This document shows positions 13,897-25,704 of a stretch of 64,000 nucleotides of DNA, piece by piece. The stretch is from Dorea sp. (GTDB lineage Bacteria; Bacillota; Clostridia; Lachnospirales; Lachnospiraceae): assembly GCA_022769185.1 (NCBI GenBank), contig JALEKG010000009.1:1-64000 (forward strand), given 5' to 3'. Within the stretch, counting starts at the first letter, position 1. The number at the start of each line of letters is the position of its first letter. A program made the translations under genes and the position numbers. The notes beneath the pieces are model-generated. The model ran no database searches. It saw nothing but the letters and a program-made list of their open reading frames with translations, and was not told the DNA's origin.

Positions 13897-14376
13897 ATGC
13901 AATGTGATTCGAAGACGTTTGCAAAGATGTATGAAGAAATATATGTGGATCTGTATCGGTATGCTTTATGTATGTTAAAGAACCGGCATGAGGCGGAGGA
14001 TGCGGTCAGTGAGGCAGTCATAGCTGCTTATGAAAATATCCGGAAACTTCGGAAAGAAAATGCGTTTAAGAGCTGGATATTTACGATTCTGGCAAACGTG
14101 TGTAAAAAGAAAATGAAACAGGCGACAAAGGAAGTACATAATGGTGTCGAATCGATGGATGACTGGATTGCTGCAGAGTCTCCCGATTACGGGATAGGGA
14201 CAGATGTAAGGCGTGCATTTTTTATTTTGTCAGAGGAAGAGCAGATGATTGTGGGAATGTCCGTCTTTGGTGGATATAACAGTAAAGAAATCGGGAAGAT
14301 ACTCGGGATGAATTCCAATACGGTACGTTCGAGACGAAGCCGCGCGCTTCAAAAAATGGAATGTATATTAAAGTAA
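13897..14376 (+). CDS. ECF-type RNA polymerase sigma factor
   Basis: A 159-residue sigma-70 family factor with region 2 (YVDLYRYALCMLKNRHEAEDAVSEAVIAAYENI, residues about 12-45, including the -10 recognition helix) and region 4 (LSEEEQMIVGMSVFGGYNSKEIGKIL with helix-turn-helix NSNTVRSRRSRALQKM). Length and two-domain make-up fit an extracytoplasmic-function sigma factor. The ATG at 13897 follows GGAGGAGAAGG; the much longer in-frame ORF upstream crosses a terminator and is not real. It is followed 17 bases later by a single-pass membrane protein with a large outer beta-propeller, which is the likely anti-sigma. Confidence 0.9.
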   Translation: MQCDSKTFAKMYEEIYVDLYRYALCMLKNRHEAEDAVSEAVIAAYENIRKLRKENAFKSWIFTILANVCKKKMKQATKEVHNGVESMDDWIAAESPDYGIGTDVRRAFFILSEEEQMIVGMSVFGGYNSKEIGKILGMNSNTVRSRRSRALQKMECILK

Positions 14377-14393
14377 GGAAAGGAGACTGCGGT

Positions 14394-16307
14394 ATGGATA
14401 AGAATGAAAAAAATGTAATGGACCGGATCCGAAAGGCAACTGATGATGTAGAAGTACCGGATCGCCTGAAGCCGGAACGGATGCAAGAAGTGTTAGAAGG
14501 GAAAAAGCCAAAGAAGAGATTGCAGATCTATCGGATTGGCCTGCTTGCTGCGGCCTGTCTGGCTGTTGTGTCAGGAATTTTGTTATGGATGAGCTCAAAA
14601 GAGGATCTAGCTGTAGGAATCAATAGAAGTCAGAATGGTGGAAAAGAAAAGATTAGTGACAATAAGCAGATTGCTTCTGCTGAGAACTATGAACAGATCT
14701 ATGATTATATTAAGGAATATCAGGATCGTATGGAGATTCAGGAACGAAGTTCAACCACATACGATATTGGAAGTATGGAAATGGAATCATCGGAAGATAG
14801 TGCTGCCACGAGCGGCAGTTATTCTGGTGATTATTCTCAGACGAATGTCAGACAGGAAGGTGTAGATGAAGGCGATATTGTAAAGACGGATGGCAGGTAT
14901 CTGTATGTGGTAGAAGACAACGGGCAGACTGTAGATATTGTAAAAGCCGATGGAGGAAATCTTGAAAAGTCTGGAAGTATTGAGCTGGGAAAAGACTATG
15001 ATATCCGGGAGATTTATCTGAATACAGAAAAGCAAAAACTGGTGATAGTCTGTGAAAGGGTGGTATTGTACAATGACAGTTTTGAAGCACAGACGGATTC
15101 TGTAGAAGATGATTATGTATGGGAAGAGCAAAAGACAGTGGCGATTACGTATGATATCCAGGATGTGTCGCATCCTTCGGAAGAAGGAAGAGTATCTCAG
15201 AGTGGCAGCTATAGCTCTTCCAGAATGGCAGGAGGATATCTGTATCTTTTCAGTGAGTATTATGTCGGAGGAGAAATTGATAAAGTAGAACCGCGAACTT
15301 ATATTCCGTTGATTAATGAGAAAACGATAGAAGAAAGCAGCATCTGTCTTCCGCAGATAGCTCAGGGCTGTATGTATGAAGTAATTACCTCCATAAATAT
15401 TGAAAATCCCGATCAGGTGGAAGATAATAAAGCGATTTTCAGTAAAGGCGGCCAGGTCTATGTAAGTAATCATAATATTTATTTCTATGAGACGGAATGG
15501 AGTGATTTTGATTCTTCTGTAACAACCATCAGAAAGATTTCTTATCAAAATGGCCAATTGGAAGCAAAGAAACAGGGATCCTTCAAGGGGTATCTGAATG
15601 ATTCGTTTTCCATTGATGAGTACGATGGATACTTAAGAGTAGTAACGACATTTGGTGATACCAATGCGGTATATGTATTGGATGAAAATCTGAAGGTTAC
15701 CGGATCAATTGAAGATCTGGCAGAAGATGAGAGAATCTATTCAGCCAGGTTTTTCGGGGATACCGGATATTTTGTTACATTTAGGGAAACCGATCCGCTT
15801 TTTAGCGTAGATCTGTCGGACCCGGAAAATCCAAAGATTCTGGGTGAGCTTAAAATTCCAGGATTTTCTGAATATTTGCATTTCTACGGAGAAGATCGGC
15901 TGCTCGGAATTGGAATGTCGGCAGATGAAGAGACAGGAAGTGCAGAAAATGTGAAACTTTCCATGTTTGATATTTCTGACAATACAGACGTTAAAGAAGT
16001 GGCAATGTATGAGCTGGAGGATGTGTTTGGTACAGATGTTTCTTATGATTATAAGTCGGTTTTGGCAGATCCGGAAAAAAATCTAATTGGATTTGCAGGA
16101 TACACATGGAGCGGTGAGAACTATTATCTGTTCACTTATGATGAAAAAGACGGGTTTATCTGTAAGCTGGAAGAGGAGATTAATGGAAATACTTCCAGAG
16201 GAACACGGGGAATTTATATACAGGATACTTTATATGTGATCCAGGGAAATGTCATTGAGGCATATCGTCTGTCAGATTCAGAGAAAGTAGGAGACTTTAT
16301 ATTGTAA
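14394..16307 (+). CDS. Membrane-anchored beta-propeller protein, probable anti-sigma factor
   Basis: A 637-residue protein with three parts: a charged cytosolic N-terminus (about 1-47, with VMDRIRKATDDVEVPDRL resembling the short anti-sigma helices), one transmembrane helix (about 48-68, IGLLAAACLAVVSGILLWM), and a large outer domain with repeated beta blades (DGRYLYVVEDNGQTVDIV, GYLYLFSEYYVGG, GGQVYVSNHNIYFYE, FFGDTGYFVTFRETDPLFSVDLSDPENPKILGELKIPGF), matching the PF09826-type secreted beta-propeller family. AAAGGAGA precedes the ATG. Placement 17 bases after the ECF sigma gene argues that the N-terminus holds the sigma factor and the propeller senses an envelope signal. The anti-sigma role is inferred from context and topology; the propeller family call is firm. 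Confidence 0.82.
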   Translation: MDKNEKNVMDRIRKATDDVEVPDRLKPERMQEVLEGKKPKKRLQIYRIGLLAAACLAVVSGILLWMSSKEDLAVGINRSQNGGKEKISDNKQIASAENYEQIYDYIKEYQDRMEIQERSSTTYDIGSMEMESSEDSAATSGSYSGDYSQTNVRQEGVDEGDIVKTDGRYLYVVEDNGQTVDIVKADGGNLEKSGSIELGKDYDIREIYLNTEKQKLVIVCERVVLYNDSFEAQTDSVEDDYVWEEQKTVAITYDIQDVSHPSEEGRVSQSGSYSSSRMAGGYLYLFSEYYVGGEIDKVEPRTYIPLINEKTIEESSICLPQIAQGCMYEVITSINIENPDQVEDNKAIFSKGGQVYVSNHNIYFYETEWSDFDSSVTTIRKISYQNGQLEAKKQGSFKGYLNDSFSIDEYDGYLRVVTTFGDTNAVYVLDENLKVTGSIEDLAEDERIYSARFFGDTGYFVTFRETDPLFSVDLSDPENPKILGELKIPGFSEYLHFYGEDRLLGIGMSADEETGSAENVKLSMFDISDNTDVKEVAMYELEDVFGTDVSYDYKSVLADPEKNLIGFAGYTWSGENYYLFTYDEKDGFICKLEEEINGNTSRGTRGIYIQDTLYVIQGNVIEAYRLSDSEKVGDFIL

Positions 16308-16417
16308 ATAAGAGCTGTAGTGTATTGTTATAATTAAAAAAATAGTTTAAAAAAATCAGAAAATTAAACAATAAAATACAAATTATAAATTAATAAAAAG
16401 AAAATATCAAAATAGTG

Positions 16418-16446
16418 TTGACAAATAGAAGGGCAGGTGATATTAT
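16418..16446 (+). promoter_or_regulatory. Strong sigma-A promoter with no intact gene behind it
   Basis: Perfect TTGACA, 17-base spacer, TATTAT. One of the best promoters in the window. Confidence 0.75.
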
Positions 16447-16534
16447 ATAATCAATCCAAAGGAAATCCATTATAAATCGAAAACAAGGATTCCTGACGAG
16501 AAAGGGAAGCTTGAAAATATCATAATATTAATAG

Positions 16535-16645
16535 TTTATATTTAATTTAAAGGCTGATCTTACATTTGATAAGATAATATTTGAAGATATTTCATATGAG
16601 GTATTTGGTAAAGCATCAAATGTTTTGTATCGAAAATCTTACTAA
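16535..16645 (+). pseudogene. Coding-like fragment without start
   Basis: Thirty-six sense codons followed by TAA with a protein-like composition (mixed hydrophobic and acidic residues: KADLTFDKIIFEDISYEVFG). It has no start codon or ribosome site and is preceded by TAG, so it is best read as a remnant. I do not recognise the family. Confidence 0.35.
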
Positions 16646-16758
16646 ATATGAATATTAAGAAATGATAGAAAGAAGTATTTATAATTGGAGAAAAATGATT
16701 CTCATATGTTGGTGAGTATCATAATAATTGGAAATAAAAGCAAAGGAGGCTTAATCCA

Positions 16759-16848
16759 TTGGACAATGTTATAGAATTTCATAATCAATATGTTAGTGGT
16801 ATGGCAAATAGAAGTTCCCATAGAATAAGCCTTAACCATAGAAGATAG
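16759..16848 (+). CDS. Possible 29-residue small protein or gene remnant
   Basis: A TTG start lies 9 bases after AAAGGAGG, a near-perfect ribosome site, and the frame runs 29 codons to TAG (MDNVIEFHNQYVSGMANRSS...). The residues downstream in other frames look coding-like but broken (for example DKIRELESEK at about 16860-16889), so this may be the start of a frameshifted gene instead of a genuine micro-protein. Confidence 0.35.
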   Translation: MDNVIEFHNQYVSGMANRSSHRISLNHRR

Positions 16849-17100
16849 GAACCGGTAAGATAAGATTAGAGAATTGGAATCGGAGAAGTAGAGAACCGGA
16901 TAATAAATATAGAGATTTGCAGACATATTGAATAGATACCACAGTAGAATAATTAGAAGATGTGTAAAGAAACATCAGATTATCTACAAACGTCGTTAAT
17001 GATTTCATTTGAATTTGAATAACGAAAAAGGGAAATGGGAACATTTTGAAAAAGAATGATCCTCCGATTATAAATATGAATGTTATAAAATTGAATAGTT

Positions 17101-17139
17101 AATAGCCATCATGATAAAAGTTGTGATGGCTATTTTTTT
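17101..17139 (+). terminator. Terminator of the orphan transcription unit
   Basis: Eleven-base perfect stem AATAGCCATCA/TGATGGCTATT, 12-base loop, and a T run reaching 17139. Confidence 0.85.
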
Positions 17140-17207
17140 CGTGAAGTGGAAGGAATGTAACTTTTGTAACTTTTGTAATATATTTTTAACATTTTTAGGA
17201 GGATATT

Positions 17208-17236
17208 TTGACAATACTCAGGCCATATGATAAACT
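17208..17236 (+). promoter_or_regulatory. Promoter of the 1255-residue multidomain protein
   Basis: TTGACA, 17-base spacer, TAAACT. Just upstream at 17158-17180 the unit TAACTTTTG is repeated in tandem. Confidence 0.65.
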
Positions 17237-17295
17237 TATATAAGTAAAAATGTAGGTTCACAGATTCGTTTAAATATATTATTGAGGTGAGAAAT

Positions 17296-20200
17296 TTGGA
17301 TAAATATGAATATCGGGTAAAAACGGAACAAATGCTTGAGTATTTAGAGCAGAAAAATTATAAAAAAGCAATGGATATTGCTGATATGATTGACTGGAGA
17401 AGAGTCAAGAATGCATCCATGTTGAATACGGTAAGTGAGATATATGAATACAATGGAGAGTTTCAGAAAAGCAGGGATGTTTTGCTTATTGCATTTGACC
17501 GTGCTCCTGGAAGCCGTAAGATTGTATATCGGTTGGGAATTTTAGCATTAAAGATTCATGATATCAGCGAAGCAACAGACTGCTATGAGGAGTTTGTAAA
17601 GATTGCACCGAAGGATCCGAATCAGTATATTTTAAAGTATAAGATATTGAGAGCTCAGAGTGCACCGCTGACAGAGCAGATTGCGGCTCTGGAGGATTTT
17701 AAGAAAGCTGAATATATTGAAAAATGGGCCTATGAGTTGGCAAAATTATATCATGAAGCAGGAATGACAGCGGAATGCCTGGAAGAATGTGATGATTTGA
17801 TCTTGTGGTTCAGTGAAGGGAAATATGTATACCTGGCGATGGAACTCAAGATGAAGTATAAGCCACTGACTCCACTTCAGCAGGAGAAGTATGATAGTCG
17901 TCCGGGAGCTGCAAAGAAAAAGACGGTGGTGATGGAAGAGACTTCCGCTGATGAAGAAGAAGCTGATGAAGGCGAGAATGAAGTGCCAGAAACAACCGAA
18001 GAAGTAACTCGGGAAGAAGAGCCGGAAGAGGCTGAAGAAGAAGAGATATCGGAAGTGGCAGAAGCTGTGCCTGTTAATACAGAGGAAGTTCTCAGAGAGC
18101 AGGAAGCTTGGGACAGGGAAAACACGGAAGAAGAGCCAGAAGAAGATGATGCGCCAGAAGAAAAAGCACATTCTTCTATTACACAGATTGTAAAAGGAGC
18201 TACTTTGGAAGAGGCACTTGCCAATGGCGTTGCACTTGCAAGTGGAATTAATATAGAAGAAAAGGCCATGAAAGAAAGAGAAGATGAACTCTTAATGGGT
18301 GGTCAGATGCGGATTGATGATATCCTCCAGCAGTGGGAAGAAAAGCAGAAAGAAAATGCAGAGGCCATCGAGAAGCAAAAGCAAAAAGATGAGGAACGAA
18401 TCCGCAGAGAAAGAGAAGAAGCAAAAGCGAGACAAGAAGAGGAGCGTCGTGAAGTAGAACGTAAAGCAGCAGAGGCCGCAAGAAAGGCAGCAGAGGAAGA
18501 AGCTGCAAGAAAGGCAGCAGAAGAGGCTGCAAAAAAAGCGGCAGAGGAAGAGGCCGCAAGAAAGGCGGCGGAAGAAGAAGCTGCAAGAAAAGCAGCGGAA
18601 GAAGCCGCGAAAAAGGAAGCGGAAGAAGAAGCCGCGAGAAAAGCAGCAGAAGAGGCTGCAAGAAAAGCAGCAGAAGAAGCTGCAAGAAAGGCGGCGGAAG
18701 AAGAAGCCGCAAGAAAAGCAGCAGAAGAGGCTGCCAAAAAAGCGGCAGAGGAAGAGGCTGCAAAGAAGATGGCGGAAGAAGAGGCCGGAAATATGCAGGT
18801 TCCAGAGTGTACACTTTTGGATTATTTGAAAGATAATTGTCCGGGAGAAGACGAGACTGCAATTCACTATTATGGAACGAATGTAATCTGGAGCACTGTT
18901 TTTGAGCAGACGGAGGCGGTTGCACGTTCTTTGAAGACTTTAGGTTTCAGGGAAGGTGATCAGATCCCTGTATTCTTGTGTACCGTTCCAGAGTTTGTAT
19001 ATCTGCTTCTTGCTGCAGAGAGAATAGGGGCTTCTTTATTATGTCGTAATAATTCATTAGAAGAAAACGTAGAGGCTGTTGCAAAGTCAGGAGCAAAAGC
19101 AATTTTTGCACATGATTACCTTAGCCAGGATGAGTTGGAAGCATATCTGTCAGGAAGCAATGTGGAAAGAGTCATTCTTTTGGAAACATGTTATTCTGGA
19201 AACCGTGAAGCAATGCCGGATTATATTCAGAAGAATCTTGATGAGTGTTATCCTGTGAATGCTGCACAGGGAAAAGCAGTTATGAGTTGGGATGAATTTA
19301 TGGCTCTTGGTGATTGCTATATAGGAAATGTGGATACAGCAATTGATACTAATCGTCCATTGTTCCGTGCTTATACGAATGATTCCAATGGAAATCTGAA
19401 AGAGGTAATCCATTCTGCGCATACAATGCTGGGTGTAATTCAACGGTTGAGTTCTGATGATGTATCGGAGCAGTTCCGTTCGACAGAACTGGTAACTCAG
19501 ATGTGTCCGGCTGTATCATATGTTGCCGCATCTGTATTAATGCCTATGGCATCTGACAAATTGCTGATTCTGGATCCGTTCTGTGCACCAAAGGATGTTG
19601 AACTGGAAAAGAAACGCTATCACCTGGATGCAGAAGCAGAGAGAAAAGCGGCAGAGGAAGAAGCTGCAAGAAAAGCAGAAGAAGCAAGAAAAGCGGCAGA
19701 AGAAGCTGCAAAAAAACCGGCACAGGAGATAGGAAAGACACAGAGAATTCCAGATGATATCGTAAGGCTGATGGAAGAAATGGAAGGCGGAACGGAAGAT
19801 TCAGAGGATGAAGTCGAAGATTTTGATGACGTATTTGAAGAAGATGAATTTATCGACGGAATGGAAGAAGAATTGGAAGGCGTTAATTTTGAAGAAGATG
19901 ACTTCTTTGAAGAAGAGGATTCTTTTGAGACAGATGAATATGTCGAAGAAGAAGATTTTGAAGAGTTAGGAGAAGATTTCGAGGAAGAAGACTTCGAGGA
20001 AGAAGATTTTGAAGAAGAGGACTTCGAAGAGGAAGAAGACTTTGAGGAAGAAGACTTCGAGGAAGAAGACTTTGAGGAAGAAGACTTTGAAGAAGAAGAC
20101 TTTGAAGAAGAGGACTTCGAGGAAGAAATGCTTGAGGATGATTCTGAGGAAACTGATACGGAAGAACTGGTAATAGAAGAGCCGTCTGAGGAAGAGATTC

Positions 20201-21063
20201 AGGAAAGAATCAAGAAATCGAAAGGCGGAGTTCCATTTGATACCGGATTTGTTGTAACGGGCCGATATGACTTAAGTGCCACGAGTGAAATTGGTCTGAA
20301 AGCTGGTCTTACAGAGGAACAGAAGAAGCTGTTTTCTTACTTTGTTCCTGTCAGAGGAATGAGTGAGCAGATTGTTGAAGTACTGGATAATGACAGAAGA
20401 GCGCAGAGAGAAGGAACTTCCAAGACAGGAAACCTTCTGGTAATTGGCCGTAAAGGTTCTGGTAAGACAGTACTTGCAGTCGATATTGTGAAAGCAATTC
20501 AAAAACAGAGAAACTTAAAGCAGGGTAAGGTTGCAATTGTAACCGGTGAGTCGCTTAATAAGAAGGAACTTACCAATATTATTCAGAAGCTTCGAGGTGG
20601 AGCGATTATTATTGAAAAAGCCGGAAAGCTGAATTCCAGAACAATCAAAGAGCTGAATTATCTGATGGAAAAGAAGACAGGAGAGCTTCTGTTTGTATTA
20701 GAAGATCAGAGAAAACCGCTGGAGCGTCTGTTGACAGCGAACCCGGAATTCAAGAAGAAGTTTACTTCAAAACTGGAACTTCCGGTATTTATCAATGATG
20801 AACTGGTGACCTTTGGTCAGACATATGCAAAGGAAAATGGATATAAGCTGGATGAGATGGGAATTCTTGCATTATACAGCCGTATTGATATTATGCAGCG
20901 GGAAGATCATGCAGTATCTGTTTCGGAAGTGAAAGAGATTATGGATGAAGCAATTGCCCGTTCACAGAAAGCGAATGTCAAGCATCTTGCCAGAAGAGTA
21001 TTTGGAAAGAGTACAGATGAGTCTGACAGAATTATTCTGAAGGAAGAAGATTTTAAAATCTAA
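17296..21063 (+). CDS. Multidomain TPR / coiled-coil / acyl-CoA-synthetase-like / AAA-like protein
   Basis: About 1255 residues. In order: TPR-like helices (1-190; SEIYEYNGEFQKSRDVLLIAF, LGILALKIHDISEATDCYEEF); acidic linker (200-295); Ala-Lys-Glu coiled coil built from KAAEEEAAR units (about 360-500); a lobe resembling the N-terminal half of an AMP-forming acyl-CoA synthetase (about 502-775; LKTLGFREGDQIPVFLCTVPEF) whose ATP loop is degenerate (YTNDSNGNLKEVIHS, lacking the normal Gly-Thr and PKG residues); a second short KAAEE run; acidic repeats of EEDFE (about 885-945); and a C-terminal module like CbxX/SpoVK AAA ATPases with intact Walker A GRKGSGKT (about 1051) but Walker B altered to GGAIIIEKAG and the arginine-finger stretch to NPEFKKKF. 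The start is TTG 17296 after GAGGTG; GTG at 17287 has no ribosome site. Catalysis by either enzyme-like part seems unlikely, so a scaffold is inferred. No signal peptide or membrane segment. Confidence 0.85.
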   Translation: MDKYEYRVKTEQMLEYLEQKNYKKAMDIADMIDWRRVKNASMLNTVSEIYEYNGEFQKSRDVLLIAFDRAPGSRKIVYRLGILALKIHDISEATDCYEEFVKIAPKDPNQYILKYKILRAQSAPLTEQIAALEDFKKAEYIEKWAYELAKLYHEAGMTAECLEECDDLILWFSEGKYVYLAMELKMKYKPLTPLQQEKYDSRPGAAKKKTVVMEETSADEEEADEGENEVPETTEEVTREEEPEEAEEEEISEVAEAVPVNTEEVLREQEAWDRENTEEEPEEDDAPEEKAHSSITQIVKGATLEEALANGVALASGINIEEKAMKEREDELLMGGQMRIDDILQQWEEKQKENAEAIEKQKQKDEERIRREREEAKARQEEERREVERKAAEAARKAAEEEAARKAAEEAAKKAAEEEAARKAAEEEAARKAAEEAAKKEAEEEAARKAAEEAARKAAEEAARKAAEEEAARKAAEEAAKKAAEEEAAKKMAEEEAGNMQVPECTLLDYLKDNCPGEDETAIHYYGTNVIWSTVFEQTEAVARSLKTLGFREGDQIPVFLCTVPEFVYLLLAAERIGASLLCRNNSLEENVEAVAKSGAKAIFAHDYLSQDELEAYLSGSNVERVILLETCYSGNREAMPDYIQKNLDECYPVNAAQGKAVMSWDEFMALGDCYIGNVDTAIDTNRPLFRAYTNDSNGNLKEVIHSAHTMLGVIQRLSSDDVSEQFRSTELVTQMCPAVSYVAASVLMPMASDKLLILDPFCAPKDVELEKKRYHLDAEAERKAAEEEAARKAEEARKAAEEAAKKPAQEIGKTQRIPDDIVRLMEEMEGGTEDSEDEVEDFDDVFEEDEFIDGMEEELEGVNFEEDDFFEEEDSFETDEYVEEEDFEELGEDFEEEDFEEEDFEEEDFEEEEDFEEEDFEEEDFEEEDFEEEDFEEEDFEEEMLEDDSEETDTEELVIEEPSEEEIQERIKKSKGGVPFDTGFVVTGRYDLSATSEIGLKAGLTEEQKKLFSYFVPVRGMSEQIVEVLDNDRRAQREGTSKTGNLLVIGRKGSGKTVLAVDIVKAIQKQRNLKQGKVAIVTGESLNKKELTNIIQKLRGGAIIIEKAGKLNSRTIKELNYLMEKKTGELLFVLEDQRKPLERLLTANPEFKKKFTSKLELPVFINDELVTFGQTYAKENGYKLDEMGILALYSRIDIMQREDHAVSVSEVKEIMDEAIARSQKANVKHLARRVFGKSTDESDRIILKEEDFKI
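18460..18790 (+). repeat. Imperfect tandem repeats encoding KAAEEEAAR units
   Basis: About fourteen GCA/GAA/AAA-rich units of 21-27 bases encode Lys-Ala-Ala-Glu-Glu blocks of the coiled coil. Synonymous changes between units show they are not a recent slippage product. A shorter set recurs at about 19634-19720. Confidence 0.85.
19951..20130 (+). repeat. Tandem GAAGAAGACTTC-type repeats encoding EEDFE units
   Basis: Twelve-base units (GAGGAAGAAGACTTC-like, with GAC/GAT, TTC/TTT and GAG/GAA variation) encode repeated Glu-Glu-Asp-Phe. The near-identical units could change number by slippage, so length variation between strains is likely. Confidence 0.85.
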
Positions 21064-21075
21064 ATAAATTTAAAC

Positions 21076-21116
21076 AGGGTTTTGGCGTGTAAATTTGCCA
21101 AAACCCTTTCTTTTTG
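21076..21116 (+). terminator. Terminator of the multidomain gene
   Basis: Perfect 11-base stem AGGGTTTTGGC/GCCAAAACCCT, ten-base loop, then TTCTTTTT. Confidence 0.9.
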
Positions 21117-21172
21117 TCAGACACTAAAGTATAATGTTAGTATATAATCCAATAGAAATGCGAGGGTTAGCT

Positions 21173-23083
21173 ATGGCAGGAAAAAAGATAAAACCATATG
21201 AGATCGGCGAGTTAGATCATTATCTTTTCGGACAGGGGAATCACTACGAAATTTACAAGAAGATGGGTGCGCATCTGGTAAAAAATGGGAAGAAAGAAGG
21301 CGTATATTTTGCGGTCTGGGCACCGCATGCACGTTCCGTATCTGTAGTGGGTGAGTTTAATGACTGGGATATGGACGCAAATCCGATGGAACGGGAAGAA
21401 CCACTTGGAATCTATACTTGTTTTATTCCGGATGTGAAAGAATTCGATATGTATAAATATTGTATTGAAACATATTCCGGAGAGCATGTTTTTAAAGCAG
21501 ATCCTTTTGCAAATTATGCAGAAATGAGACCGGGTACCGCATCAAAAGTTGTGGATATTACGAAGATCAAATGGACGGATTCAGATTGGATGACGAAGAG
21601 GGCGTCATGGGTACATACGAAAGAACCCATGTCTGTGTATGAGTGCCATATTGGTTCCTGGAGACGTCATCCGGGAACGGAAGACGAAGGATTCTATACA
21701 TACAGAGAATTTGCGAAAGAGATTGTAAAGTATGTAAAAGATATGGGCTATACGCATGTTGAGCTGATGGGAATTGCGGAGCATCCATATGATGGGTCCT
21801 GGGGATATCAGGTAACCGGTTATTATGCACCGACATCCAGATATGGGACGCCAGAAGATTTTGCCTGGATGATTAATTATCTGCATCGTAATAAGATTGG
21901 TGTTATTCTGGACTGGGTTCCGGCACATTTTCCGAGAGATGCACATGGACTGGCAAATTTTGATGGTACACCGACTTATGAATATGCGGATCCGAGAAAA
22001 GGAGAACATCCGGACTGGGGAACCAAGATCTTTGATTTTGGGAAGAATGAAGTACGTAACTTCCTGATTTCTAATGCGTTGTACTGGATTGAACAGTTCC
22101 ATGTAGACGGACTTCGAGTAGATGCGGTGGCATCGATTCTTTATCTGGATTATGGTAAGAGAGATGGAGAATGGGTTGCGAATAAATATGGTGATAATAA
22201 GAATCTGGAAGCAATTGATTTCTTTAAACATCTGAATTCCGTAGTGCTTGGAAGAAATCCTGGAACGCTCATGATTGCAGAGGAATCTACTGCATGGCCG
22301 AAAGTGACAGGAGATGTAGAGGATGGAGGACTTGGCTTCAGCTTGAAATGGAACATGGGCTGGATGCATGATTTTACGGAATACATGAAACTGGATCCTT
22401 ATTTTAGAAAGGATAACCATCATATGATGACATTTGCCATGAGCTATGCATACAGCGAGAACTATATTCTGGTGCTGTCTCATGATGAAGTAGTTCATCT
22501 GAAATGTTCTATGCTAAATAAGATGCCGGGACTTGGCCTGGATAAATTCTCTAATCTGAAAGTCGGATATGCATTTATGATGGGACATTCTGGAAAGAAA
22601 CTTCTCTTTATGGGTCAGGAATTTGCACAGCTTCGTGAGTGGAGTGAAGAGAGAGAACTGGACTGGTTTCTTCTGGAGGAAGAGCCGCATGTTCAGATGC
22701 AGAGCTGGGTGCGAGATCTTCTTCATCTGTATAAGAGCCATAAGGCAATGTATGAGATGGATCAGAGCTGGGAAGGATTTGAATGGATCAATGCAGATGA
22801 TGCATATAGAAGTGTTTACAGTTTTATGAGACATTCTAAGGATAAGAAACGCAATCTGCTGTTTGTATGTAACTTTACACCGATGGAATGGAAGGATTAT
22901 CGTGTGGGAGTGCCGCGCAGGAAACAATACAAGCTGATTATGAACAGTGATGATGTGAAGTATGGCGGAACCGGAAAGAAGAGGCCTGTTGTATATAAAG
23001 CAGTAAAGAAGGAATGTGATGGAAGGCCATACTCATTTGCCTATAAGCTTCCGCCATATGGTGTAGCCATCTTTGAGTTTTAG
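21173..23083 (+). CDS. glgB: 1,4-alpha-glucan branching enzyme
   Basis: A 636-residue GH13 enzyme that makes alpha-1,6 branches in glycogen. An N-terminal CBM48-type domain (GVYFAVWAPHARSVSVVGEFNDW) is followed by the catalytic barrel with the four conserved regions: LDWVPAHFPRDAHG, GLRVDAVASILYLDY (nucleophile Asp), IAEESTAWP (acid Glu) and LSHDEVVH. The C-terminal beta domain ends at PYGVAIFEF. Length is typical for the short bacterial form. The start at 21173 (MAGKKIKPYE) follows GAGGG by 6 bases; the ORF extends to 21134 without a ribosome site. No other glycogen genes are adjacent, so the gene stands alone between two terminators. Confidence 0.95.
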   Translation: MAGKKIKPYEIGELDHYLFGQGNHYEIYKKMGAHLVKNGKKEGVYFAVWAPHARSVSVVGEFNDWDMDANPMEREEPLGIYTCFIPDVKEFDMYKYCIETYSGEHVFKADPFANYAEMRPGTASKVVDITKIKWTDSDWMTKRASWVHTKEPMSVYECHIGSWRRHPGTEDEGFYTYREFAKEIVKYVKDMGYTHVELMGIAEHPYDGSWGYQVTGYYAPTSRYGTPEDFAWMINYLHRNKIGVILDWVPAHFPRDAHGLANFDGTPTYEYADPRKGEHPDWGTKIFDFGKNEVRNFLISNALYWIEQFHVDGLRVDAVASILYLDYGKRDGEWVANKYGDNKNLEAIDFFKHLNSVVLGRNPGTLMIAEESTAWPKVTGDVEDGGLGFSLKWNMGWMHDFTEYMKLDPYFRKDNHHMMTFAMSYAYSENYILVLSHDEVVHLKCSMLNKMPGLGLDKFSNLKVGYAFMMGHSGKKLLFMGQEFAQLREWSEERELDWFLLEEEPHVQMQSWVRDLLHLYKSHKAMYEMDQSWEGFEWINADDAYRSVYSFMRHSKDKKRNLLFVCNFTPMEWKDYRVGVPRRKQYKLIMNSDDVKYGGTGKKRPVVYKAVKKECDGRPYSFAYKLPPYGVAIFEF

Positions 23084-23101
23084 ATAAGAATACGAGTATA
23101 A

Positions 23102-23134
23102 AAATAGGAACTGTATAACAGTTCCTATTTTTTA
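23102..23134. terminator. Bidirectional terminator between glgB and the DUF1002 gene
   Basis: Perfect 13-base stem AAATAGGAACTGT/ACAGTTCCTATTT with a three-base loop, a T run on the plus side and an A run on the other side, placed between convergent genes. Confidence 0.92.
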
Positions 23135-23141
23135 TACTTTG

Positions 23142-24410
23142 CTATTCGGCAGATGAATCTTCACTGGTGCTGTCATCTGCTCCCGTTCCGGCGTTATCCG
23201 GAAGCTGGCTTTCATCTGTATCGGCAGAACCGTCATTATCCTGACTTCCATCGGAAGTGGCGCTGTCAGATGAATCATCCAGGGAAGAATCAGGAGTGGA
23301 ATCATCGCTGGTGTCAGTGTCACCCATGTTATCCGTATCTGTATCGTCTGCCGCATCAGCGTCGTCAACGATTTCATCCTTATCGGTCTCATCATCAGCA
23401 TCATCTCCACCGAAGAGATCTTTAAAGAAGTTTACAATCTTACTCCAGAAACCGCCCTCGTCTTTTTCCGCAGCATCATGAACCGCATCGAGAGTACTGT
23501 CTATGATGGCACTATCGCCGAAAAGATCATCCTTTGTCTGATTGATAATACCGCCGTCACTAGTATCATCACCGGTAAAGATTCCTTTGATGGAACTCCA
23601 AAGATTGGAGAAGAATCCTTTATCTTTTCCGCTTAGATTATCAAGAGTGTTTTTTAATGCTTTTACATCATAATCATATTGAGAAATGGTCTGCATCAAA
23701 GATACGATTTTGGCCATCTGGTCTTCTGTTAATGTGATGTTGTAATTGGAAGCAGCGTCCTGAACTGCGTCCTGAATCTCTCCTTCGTCCTGAAGGTTCT
23801 CTTCAATGACTTCTTCTTTGACATCATTCATCAGACCGGTTGCCTGTTCCTGACCGATCGCATCGGCAAGTTCACCGGTTGTTACAAGTTCCTGAGTAGC
23901 TGCTTCCTTCTGGCCTTCATCCAGAGTTTCACCACTGGCTGCTTCATAGGCCATCATGATTCCTGTCAGTGCACCGGTTCCGGATACTTCGATTGGAGAA
24001 GCGGCAACGACATTACAGTTTTCAACACCGGAAGTAAGAAGTGTACTGGAAATCATTGCGCTTGTTACATAAGTAAGGTTTGCAACCTTTACCTGGATTC
24101 CGCCGCTTTCTGTGGGTTCTACATAAGAGCAGCTGTAAGTGCGGGTTCCGATTTGTGCTTCAGATGCAATCCCTTCCATGTACTTGCGTTCGTCTGCATT
24201 GGTAACTTCAATGGTTTCGACCTGGTCTGCAGATGTTCCAAAGTATTCATACATAGAATTCTTTTGATCTTCTGAAAGATTTGCGCCAAGAGTTACGACT
24301 TTGGAGCTGTCTGCACGAGCAATCATAGGAAGACCGCTTACGCTGAGAACTGCCGCCATCATAACTGGCAATATTTTTTTAAACTTTTTCATAATGCGTG
24401 GTGTAATCAC
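23142..24410 (-). CDS. DUF1002 family secreted protein
   Basis: About 422 residues. A signal peptide (KKFKKILPVMMAAVLSVSGLPMIARA) is followed by a DUF1002 domain (VTLGANLSEDQKNSMYEYFG... YSCSYVEPTESGGIQVKVANLTYVTSAMISSTLLTSGVENCNVVAASPIEVSGTGALTGIMMAYE shortened here to its landmarks), common in clostridia and of unknown function. After it come two similar amphipathic helices (GFFSNLWSSIKGIFTGDD and GFWSKIVNFFKDLFGGDD) and an Asp/Ser/Thr-rich, very acidic C-terminal tail of about 80 residues. The start is uncertain: GTG 24410 has a suitable GGGGG before it, ATG 24392 begins the signal peptide proper. The product is likely exported; the tail may bind cations or stay flexible. Confidence 0.8.
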   Translation of the reverse strand: MITPRIMKKFKKILPVMMAAVLSVSGLPMIARADSSKVVTLGANLSEDQKNSMYEYFGTSADQVETIEVTNADERKYMEGIASEAQIGTRTYSCSYVEPTESGGIQVKVANLTYVTSAMISSTLLTSGVENCNVVAASPIEVSGTGALTGIMMAYEAASGETLDEGQKEAATQELVTTGELADAIGQEQATGLMNDVKEEVIEENLQDEGEIQDAVQDAASNYNITLTEDQMAKIVSLMQTISQYDYDVKALKNTLDNLSGKDKGFFSNLWSSIKGIFTGDDTSDGGIINQTKDDLFGDSAIIDSTLDAVHDAAEKDEGGFWSKIVNFFKDLFGGDDADDETDKDEIVDDADAADDTDTDNMGDTDTSDDSTPDSSLDDSSDSATSDGSQDNDGSADTDESQLPDNAGTGADDSTSEDSSAE

Positions 24411-24495
24411 CAAGCCCCCTTTTCGTTAAATATACTGTATTTCAGATACTTCCTTAATATAACATATCGGAGAGTATTTGCAAAGAAAATATGCC

Positions 24496-24819
24496 TTAAC
24501 TATTTCTAAAGATTTTCTGTAGTCGTCTCTCGAATTCGGTTTCTTCGATGACCCCGCGCATGACGCTAAGAATCTTCTGGTTTTTGAAAAAGACAAATGT
24601 AGGAATGATATCTGCTTCATATTCGGCAGCAAGAACAGCAGATTCGTCAATTTCTACTTCGCAGAATTTGATCTGGCCAGAATATTTTTTCTCTATTTCT
24701 TCTACCACTGGTTTCATCATTGCACATTTTCCACACCATATTGCGTAGAACATGACAACGGTTGGAACAGGGCTCTTTCTGGCTTCCGTTTCAAAATTTT
24801 TGGCTGTCAGATGTAACAT
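24496..24819 (-). CDS. Thioredoxin family protein
   Basis: A 107-residue thioredoxin-fold protein with active site WCGKC near residue 28 (instead of the classical WCGPC), followed by MMKPVVEEI, and the cis-Pro loop IIPTFVFF near residue 73. It should act in the cytosol as a thiol-disulfide oxidoreductase. GAAAGG lies 10 bases before the ATG. The WCGKC variant suggests a redox potential or partner different from the housekeeping thioredoxin. It follows a tiny Cys-rich ORF and trmB on the same strand. Confidence 0.9.
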   Translation of the reverse strand: MLHLTAKNFETEARKSPVPTVVMFYAIWCGKCAMMKPVVEEIEKKYSGQIKFCEVEIDESAVLAAEYEADIIPTFVFFKNQKILSVMRGVIEETEFERRLQKIFRNS

Positions 24820-24859
24820 ATGAAATCAACCTTTCTTTTTAAGATTTGCTTGAATTGGT

Positions 24860-24997
24860 TCAGCATCCGGGATTTAAAAATCTGCAGACTTCATCCAGAG
24901 ATTTTTTCAGGCAGGATATTTTTCGGTTCAGAGTTTTCTTGCGATAAGTGAATTCACAGAGTTTTTGTTTGATACATTTCTTATTTTTACGTCCCAT
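24860..24997 (-). CDS. Possible 45-residue basic Cys-containing protein
   Basis: A short ORF, MGRKNKKCIKQKLCEF... ending SLDEVCRFLNPGC, with four widely spaced cysteines plus a C-terminal one, many Lys/Arg residues and a GGAAG 8 bases before the ATG. It sits between trmB (stop 42 bases upstream) and the thioredoxin gene (start 40 bases downstream) on the same strand, so it would be part of that operon. I do not recognise the family. The adjacency of a Cys-rich peptide and a thioredoxin may be meaningful or chance. Confidence 0.45.
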   Translation of the reverse strand: MGRKNKKCIKQKLCEFTYRKKTLNRKISCLKKSLDEVCRFLNPGC

Positions 24998-25038
24998 ATC
25001 AGTACTTCCAGACACAGAATCTTCTATATTAATATATG

Positions 25039-25704
25039 TTATCTGCGTCTTGCGGCAACCAGTTTACAGATGGGATTCCCCTGTGCGGAGAATTTTTCTT
25101 CGTATTCCGTCATAATATTTCCCTGGCTCATGCTGGCATCCTGATGCAGATCATAAGTAAGAGCCTGGATCTTAAAGGTATCAGATGTATTTAATTGCTC
25201 AACAGAAAAATCAAAAAGCAGCCGGTTGTCCGTTTTGAATTCTACGGTGCCATCGGAGGTCAGAACTTTATCATATTCCGTAAAAAATTTACTGGATGTC
25301 AGCCTTCTTCTGGCATGTCTGGCTTTCGGCCATGGATCTGAAAAATTCAGGTAGATGCGGGATACTTCCCCAGGTGCGAAATCATTTGCAATATCATGTG
25401 CATCCATGCAGATAAAACGGATATTGGAAAGAGACTCCTGCGCGGAAGTATCCATGTTCTGGAATCTCTCTACAGCTCTTAACAGGACGCTGGAATAACG
25501 TTCGATTCCTATGTAATTAATCTCGGGATTCTGTGCGGCAAGCGTCAGAAGAAACTGGCCTTTTCCCATGCCGATCTCAATGTGAAGTGGATGGGTATTC
25601 TGGAAGACTTCTTTCCATTTTCCCTTCAGATTTTCTTCATTTTTAATAACTTCATTACACTCTTTTAAAACGCTCTCGGCACGAGGAATATTTCTAAGGC
25701 GCAT
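25039..25704 (-). CDS. trmB: tRNA (guanine-46-N7)-methyltransferase
   Basis: A 221-residue class I methyltransferase that makes m7G46 in the variable loop of tRNA. The S-adenosylmethionine loop HIEIGMGKGQFL is near residue 47, followed by NYIGIE, the conserved LNFSDPWPKARHARRRL (catalytic Asp and basic tRNA-binding stretch) and the C-terminal TEYEEKF motif. The ATG at 25704 follows GGAGG by 8 bases; the ORF up to 25719 is not needed. Length is normal. Confidence 0.95.
   Translation of the reverse strand: MRLRNIPRAESVLKECNEVIKNEENLKGKWKEVFQNTHPLHIEIGMGKGQFLLTLAAQNPEINYIGIERYSSVLLRAVERFQNMDTSAQESLSNIRFICMDAHDIANDFAPGEVSRIYLNFSDPWPKARHARRRLTSSKFFTEYDKVLTSDGTVEFKTDNRLLFDFSVEQLNTSDTFKIQALTYDLHQDASMSQGNIMTEYEEKFSAQGNPICKLVAARRR

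What the first reader, a model, noticed from the sequence alone, without database searches (positions are those of the whole stretch)
17296..21063. A 1255-residue scaffold built from a TPR, a dead acyl-CoA-synthetase lobe and a dead AAA module
Seen: TPR-like helices, long Ala-Lys-Glu repeats, then about 275 residues that align by eye with the N-terminal half of AMP-forming synthetases (GFREGDQIPVFLCTVPEFVY), whose ATP loop (YTNDSNGNLKEVIHS) has lost the Gly-Thr/PKG pattern and whose second half is absent. After acidic EEDFE repeats comes a CbxX/SpoVK-like AAA module with a good Walker A but GGAIIIEKAG in place of Walker B and NPEFKKKF in place of the Arg finger. Known: both families need those residues for catalysis. 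Inferred: the gene is a fusion that reuses two enzyme folds as binding platforms, perhaps sensing acyl-CoA/adenylate or ATP. I know of TPR proteins of this type in Lachnospiraceae but not this combination.
Basis: partly seen in the sequence, partly recalled or inferred. Interest (0 to 1): 0.8.

Follow-up and report, generated by a model that had tools for sequence, protein, structure and literature searches.

The report
Dead half-enzyme pasted into AAA scaffold
In one Dorea-related gut bacterium, a gene whose close relatives mostly sit beside the glycogen-branching-enzyme gene carries in frame a 277-residue stretch of acyl-CoA-synthetase-type enzyme with changed ATP-loop residues, likely a folded but inactive half-enzyme, joined to an ATPase-like end that in relatives too lacks the usual catalytic pair and is predicted to bind but not burn ATP.

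Summary
In detail: 17296-21063 encodes 1255 residues with a helical N-terminus, Ala/Glu/Lys repeats, an AMP-binding half-lobe (Pfam E 3.6e-10), EEDFE repeats and a CbbX/SpoVK-like AAA module. But the three parts are not all new together. Helical domain, charged linker and AAA module form an older Lachnospiraceae family: among the best 80 named loci found with the AAA module, 71 carry both ends in one frame and 76 have glgB directly downstream. The altered Walker B is the family state: Asp-Glu in 0 of 100 genomes tallied. Only the synthetase lobe is special to this genome. It matches residues ~25-305 of a tandem acyl-CoA-synthetase-type protein encoded elsewhere in the same genome (67% identical; clade support 99/98). 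Its ATP loop reads YTNDSNGNLK where 81 of 81 other domain rows read YTSGSTGxxK. Its first 190 residues keep 43 of 47 highly conserved positions, the last 87 keep 25 of 42. I infer an enzyme fragment copied in frame into a length-tolerant linker, whose first subdomain probably stays folded as an inactive, possibly docking, module. Acyl-CoA or ATP sensing is untested. One assembly only shows the fusion, so a second strain or long reads are needed.

The parts
17296..17910 (+). N-terminal helical (TPR-like) domain, residues 1-205
   Evidence: found in the same frame as the AAA module in 71 of 80 loci, 68-94% identical; Pfam TPR matches only sub-threshold
17911..18789 (+). acidic linker followed by Ala/Glu/Lys/Arg repeats
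   Evidence: linker length varies from 290 to 1061 residues in the 71 loci
18790..19629 (+). AMP-forming synthetase half-lobe; homology to the own-genome synthetase runs from about Asn499 to Tyr775 (the 277-residue query is 502-778)
   Evidence: Pfam PF00501; 67% identity to own-genome synthetase; junctions; predicted fold, mean pLDDT 88.7
19372..19401 (+). altered ATP loop YTNDSNGNLK (YTSGSTGxxK in 81 of 81 other rows)
19630..20238 (+). short Ala/Glu/Lys repeat, then acidic EEDFE repeats of period five
20239..21060 (+). CbbX/SpoVK-like AAA module
   Evidence: profile match to solved CbbX, E 5.9e-12; predicted fold, CbbX chains rank 1-4
20446..20469 (+). Walker A GRKGSGKT (Lys kept in 92 of 100)
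20596..20625 (+). altered Walker B GGAIIIEKAG; Asp-Glu in 0 of 100
20740..20763 (+). NPEFKKKF where CbbX has NPGFRSRI
21134..23083 (+). glgB, 1,4-alpha-glucan branching enzyme, conserved downstream neighbour
   Evidence: NCBIfam GlgB above cut-off, E 2.1e-270; adjacent in 76 of 80 named loci

Best explanation
This gene belongs to a conserved Lachnospiraceae family (helical domain, charged linker, AAA module) whose close relatives mostly lie beside glgB, and in this genome its linker holds, in frame, the first half of an acyl-CoA-synthetase-type domain that was probably copied from the genome's own synthetase lineage and is likely folded but catalytically dead, next to an AAA module predicted to bind but not hydrolyse ATP. 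Shown: the architecture; the family-wide absence of the Walker B Asp-Glu pair; the lobe's closeness to the same genome's tandem synthetase; its altered ATP loop; its missing second half; and the difference in conservation between its first 190 and last 87 residues. Inferred: that the copy arose within the lineage and settled in the linker because that linker tolerates length change; that the first subdomain is still held to a folded state while the truncated ATP-side part is free to drift; that the AAA module binds nucleotide as a static or conformational switch; and that, like CbbX, SpoVK and EccA, which act on dedicated targets, the host protein serves a dedicated partner, for which the neighbour GlgB is the best guess. 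The lobe then adds a docking or spacer surface, not an enzyme.
Against: One assembly only: 66 lobe hits and the listed 120 of 7986 AAA hits and 120 of 7987 N-terminal hits hold no second fusion; the unlisted rest was not seen. 397 family genomes gave other lobe matches only in frames of 580-779 residues. A same-species fragment (P0188, 98%) ends at residue 462, before the lobe, so it cannot decide. The low overall dN/dS would also arise if most divergence came before the insertion. Three distant synthetases with intact loops (34-38% identical) lose 17, 16 and 11 of about 43 conserved columns in the last region and 11, 9 and 13 of about 48 in the first, so the last region can drift in live enzymes. 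The lobe's GC3 (0.329) lies below that of five host stretches (0.371-0.464), nearer the synthetase's 0.349-0.363. The fold prediction used an alignment of intact synthetases, so it leans to that fold, and confidence falls to 50-77 in six of the ten blocks after residue 200. glgB was not found in 12 of 19 more distant relatives, four of which have under 2.6 kb of downstream sequence held.
Confidence: 0.6

Rival explanations
1. The lobe is junk: a non-functional fragment tolerated in a flexible linker and decaying, kept in frame only because the AAA module downstream is needed.
For: Truncated in mid-fold, found in one genome, private changes over four times those of either paralogue domain (64 against 15 and 13), one codon lost at an invariant column.
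Against: Losses are uneven: 4 of 47 against 17 of 42; free decay should hit the first 190 residues as hard. The lobe's end branch is 0.24 for the first 190 residues against 0.46 for the whole lobe.
Confidence: 0.25
2. The fusion is an assembly error that joined a synthetase-like fragment to the repeat gene.
For: No second copy seen; a MutL-synthetase chimera that looks like an assembly error is in the same hit list (P0066); another record of the species is a partial protein that ends inside these repeats.
Against: Both junctions are in frame with no stop; no 31-mer is repeated within the gene; no other place in the genome or among the database hits holds this lobe with its altered loop, at 67% identity the nearest; GC 0.415 lies within the 0.392-0.462 of five host stretches.
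Confidence: 0.1
3. The lobe is a working nucleotide or acyl-adenylate sensor.
For: The lobe keeps 25 of 35 invariant columns, among them loop residues Ser697, Gly699 and Lys702.
Against: Loop residues Ser695, Gly696 and Thr698 are replaced and the second half of the synthetase is missing.
Confidence: 0.05

Closest known systems
CbbX / SpoVK / EccA clade of AAA+ chaperones (PMC10659427, passages read)
   Same: C-terminal module matches CbbX by profile and by predicted fold; EccA also has N-terminal TPRs (that paper); the Asn before the Arg finger is kept in 74 of 100
   Different: No Asp-Glu Walker B in any of 100; sensor-1 GY aligned with Asp-Gln in the window; CbbX stretch ARSIR mostly VAEVK; seven-residue gap after Walker A; long charged linker
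AMP-forming acyl-CoA synthetases (PF00501)
   Same: 277-residue lobe, 67% identical to an intact synthetase domain of the same genome, same predicted fold
   Different: ATP loop altered, second half absent, embedded in a scaffold
Tandem synthetase P0002 and DivIVA-synthetase proteins
   Same: same synthetase subfamily; the DivIVA-type members show it joined to other coiled-coil-type domains elsewhere
   Different: compared rows keep YTSGSTGxxK, and none of the 66 has a host-family domain

Membership tests
CbbX/SpoVK/EccA AAA+ ATPases | Walker A GxxxxGKT | tested here: met
   GRKGSGKT; Lys in 92 of 100
CbbX/SpoVK/EccA AAA+ ATPases | Walker B hhhhDE | tested here: not met
   IIIEK; Asp-Glu in 0 of 100
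CbbX/SpoVK/EccA AAA+ ATPases | Asn four residues before the first Arg finger, then Arg (PMC10659427) | tested here: inconclusive
   Asn 74 of 100; Arg position Lys 52, Arg 32; window has Lys
CbbX/SpoVK/EccA AAA+ ATPases | GY in sensor 1 (PMC10659427) | tested here: not met
   In the alignment to CbbX the window has Asp-Gln there; Gly position Asp 70, Glu 27, Gly 2, Thr 1 of 100; Tyr position not tallied
CbbX/SpoVK/EccA AAA+ ATPases | AAA+ fold closest to CbbX | tested here: met
   Foldseek ranks 1-4 are CbbX chains, E 1.3e-12 to 6.6e-12; profile E 5.9e-12
AMP-forming acyl-CoA synthetase | ATP loop of the YTSGSTGxxK type | tested here: not met
   YTNDSNGNLK; 81 of 81 other rows YTSGSTGxxK
AMP-forming acyl-CoA synthetase | complete large domain plus C-terminal lid | tested here: not met
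   homology stops at about synthetase residue 305 of about 590
AMP-forming acyl-CoA synthetase | adenylation activity | not testable with these tools
   needs the purified protein
TPR proteins | several 34-residue repeats above threshold | tested here: inconclusive
   sub-threshold matches in the query and in six of seven relatives
glgB-linked Lachnospiraceae helical-AAA family (defined here) | N-terminal domain, charged linker and AAA module in one frame, glgB downstream | tested here: met

The most novel reading that the evidence does not exclude
A bacterium has turned half of a metabolic enzyme into a structural part: the fold of an acyl-CoA synthetase, stripped of its active site, was installed inside a non-hydrolysing AAA scaffold, where it docks the intact tandem synthetase and so ties fatty-acid activation to the glycogen machinery.
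Probability: 0.1. Interest if true: 0.75.

Novelty: new variant of a known kind. Interest (0 to 1): 0.45.

Why it matters
It offers a case of a protein gaining a domain by taking part of an enzyme gene into a repeat linker, with a close intact relative of the donor in the same genome and lobe-free relatives as a before-picture. Separately, it exposes a Lachnospiraceae family with a CbbX-like module that keeps Walker A in most members but has no Walker B Asp-Glu pair and often sits beside glgB: a handle for testing what non-hydrolysing AAA modules do.

Tried and rejected
Three-part novel fusion: rejected, since the helical-AAA part is an older family. Damaged AAA copy: rejected, the Walker B state is family-wide. 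Recent gene conversion as the reason for the conserved first part: rejected, dS over the first 100 codons is 1.99. Phage origin: a scan of viral contigs with the lobe found no relative (close relatives only, one query). RNA or tRNA features at 15500-25500: none. Naming the tandem synthetase's substrate: of the 25 NCBIfam matches shown for P0002 none reaches its cut-off. A first pairwise dN/dS script stopped with an error after its main results; one search repeated the whole-lobe figures. Literature: searches for Lachnospiraceae+tetratricopeptide+CbbX, pseudoenzyme+acyl-CoA synthetase+adenylation domain, Lachnospiraceae+glgB+AAA ATPase, DivIVA+acyl-CoA synthetase+fusion, an inactive AMP-binding search and tandem+acyl-CoA synthetase+Dorea+AMP-binding gave no paper. 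One search listed 12 of 110 papers and two; of these I opened only PMC10659427 and read passages. I cannot say that the family is undescribed outside this open-access library.
Full report
What is there. The frame 17296-21063 (+) is open for 1255 residues. It holds an N-terminal helical domain with weak TPR matches, an acidic linker, Ala/Glu/Lys repeats, a 277-residue AMP-binding lobe, acidic EEDFE repeats and a C-terminal AAA module.

The host protein is an older family. A search of 41 genomes matched 24, all in the same family, none of 16 from other families of the order; one of the 24, G004, matched best with an AAA relative lacking the N-terminal domain (L024). A scan of named genomes with the AAA alignment found 406 relatives, of which the best 80 were kept: Dorea, Faecalicatena, Mediterraneibacter, Coprococcus comes, Sellimonas and others. 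Of these 80, 71 carry the N-terminal domain in the same frame; of the other nine, six frames run off the start of the stretch held and three are shorter. In the 71 the linker runs from 290 to 1061 residues, in the window 760. No linker of the 80 has a globular stretch like the window's: the longest run of weakly charged composition is 26 steps of ten in the window, at most 11 elsewhere, and none matches the lobe. glgB (NCBIfam GlgB, above cut-off) follows on the same strand within 600 bases in 76 of 80 and within 3 kb in two; of the remaining two one ends at the contig edge and one has 2.9 kb without it. In 19 more distant relatives glgB is adjacent in 6, 4.4 kb away in 1 and not found in 12, four of which have under 2.6 kb of downstream sequence held; in one, transketolase follows instead.

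The AAA module. Its profile matches solved CbbX at E 5.9e-12 and its predicted structure (mean pLDDT 85.7) ranks four CbbX chains first. In 100 genomes (window, 80 loci, 19 distant relatives) the Walker A Lys is kept in 92. The Walker B Asp is Glu in 95, Gln in 4 and Asp in 1; the catalytic Glu is Lys in 83 and Glu in one; the pair Asp-Glu occurs in none. Many of the 100 are close relatives, so these are not 100 independent events, but in the alignment rows down to 30% identity also lack Asp-Glu. The Arg finger is less clear: Lys 52 and Arg 32 at the position four after the Asn, Lys 87 and Arg 1 two further on. The sensor-1 GY that PMC10659427 (passages) gives as a mark of the SpoVK-CbbX-EccA clade is Asp-Gln in the window. 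I infer nucleotide binding without ordinary hydrolysis.

The lobe. Its nearest relative found lies in the same genome: contig C14 encodes a tandem acyl-CoA-synthetase-type protein, cut by the contig end, whose full form is P0002, 1172 residues, with 3 differences in 795 residues. P0002 matches many acyl-CoA ligase models but none of the 25 shown at its cut-off, so its substrate is open. The lobe is 67% identical to its first domain and forms one clade with both domains (99/98 for the whole lobe, 100/98 for the first 190 residues). Within that clade the two domains pair with each other at 89/84 for the whole lobe and are unresolved for the first 190 residues, so the lobe may stem from an ancestor of both. 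The two sister genomes of the genus have neither lobe nor this synthetase at E 0.001. Of 397 family genomes 8 have such a match at E 1e-20; outside the window's genome these lie in frames of 580-779 residues. Of 66 lobe-hit proteins none has a host domain, and of 210 host-family proteins held none has the lobe. Homology begins at about Asn499 and ends at about Tyr775, both joins in frame.

Is it dead, and is it kept? Of 35 columns invariant in 48 non-redundant other domains the lobe loses 10; leave-one-out losses for the others are 0 in 40 and 1 to 4 in 8. Its ATP loop differs from that of all 81 other rows, some of them near-identical to each other. Yet loss is uneven: at columns conserved in at least 90% of rows, 4 of 47 lost in the first 190 residues and 17 of 42 in the last 87 (p 0.0004); private changes 30 and 34, in the two paralogue domains together 24 and 4 (p 0.0005). 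The regions were chosen by me after seeing the sequence, so the p values are guides. The lobe's end branch is 0.46 overall but 0.24 for the first 190 residues, against 0.10-0.13 for the paralogue domains. Synonymous distance is high: dS 1.93 to domain a and 1.61 to the part of domain b held, 1.40 between the two domains. Yardsticks in the host gene: 1.12 and 1.33 to one sister species, 1.58 and 2.02 to the other. All are near saturation. Recent gene conversion thus does not explain the conserved part (first 100 codons dS 1.99). Against my reading, three distant synthetases with intact loops lose 17, 16 and 11 conserved columns in the same last region, and how much of the divergence came before insertion is unknown.

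Reality of the fusion. No second instance was seen; the lists show 120 of about 7986 each. A same-species fragment stops before the lobe. In favour of a real insert: in-frame joins, no repeated 31-mer inside the gene, host-like GC (though GC3 is lower than in five host stretches) and no alternative home for the lobe in its genome.

Mechanism. I read the gene as a partner-binding scaffold derived from a CbbX-type chaperone, probably serving a dedicated partner, GlgB being the best guess from gene order. The lobe was probably copied from the genome's own synthetase lineage into a linker that tolerates length change; its truncated ATP side then drifted while its first subdomain stayed folded. Whether it docks a partner or is merely kept from misfolding is open.

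Verdict. Observation confirmed, interpretation partly supported; interest 0.45, held back by the single assembly.

Noticed in passing
L031 1-6307 (contig C14 of the window's genome): A tandem gene with two acyl-CoA-synthetase-type domains in one chain; upstream of it on the same strand lie a gene without an NCBIfam match (492 residues, HTH-like by eye) and a glycogen synthase gene glgA with a long Lys/Pro/Glu-repeat front. The lobe's host gene in turn lies beside glgB.
   Followed up: partly
database proteins P0004-P0065: 58 of 66 synthetase hits carry a DivIVA-like match (PF05103) in the precomputed domains: a septal or polar scaffold-type domain fused to an adenylating enzyme.
   Followed up: no
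P0066: A MutL-synthetase chimera on a short metagenome contig that seems to change frame at its end, probably an assembly error; a caution for fusions of this enzyme family.
   Followed up: partly
window 19950-20133 and relatives: The EEDFE repeat has period five; in two of seven relatives scanned (P0189, P0192) a pentapeptide-repeat model matches below its cut-off.
   Followed up: no
L024 (genome G004): A relative without the N-terminal domain match whose Walker A is altered too (GKHGFGST).
   Followed up: no
window 14361-16307: A 648-residue protein without an NCBIfam match at E 1e-10, beta-propeller-like by eye, after an ECF-sigma-like gene; not part of the finding.
   Followed up: no
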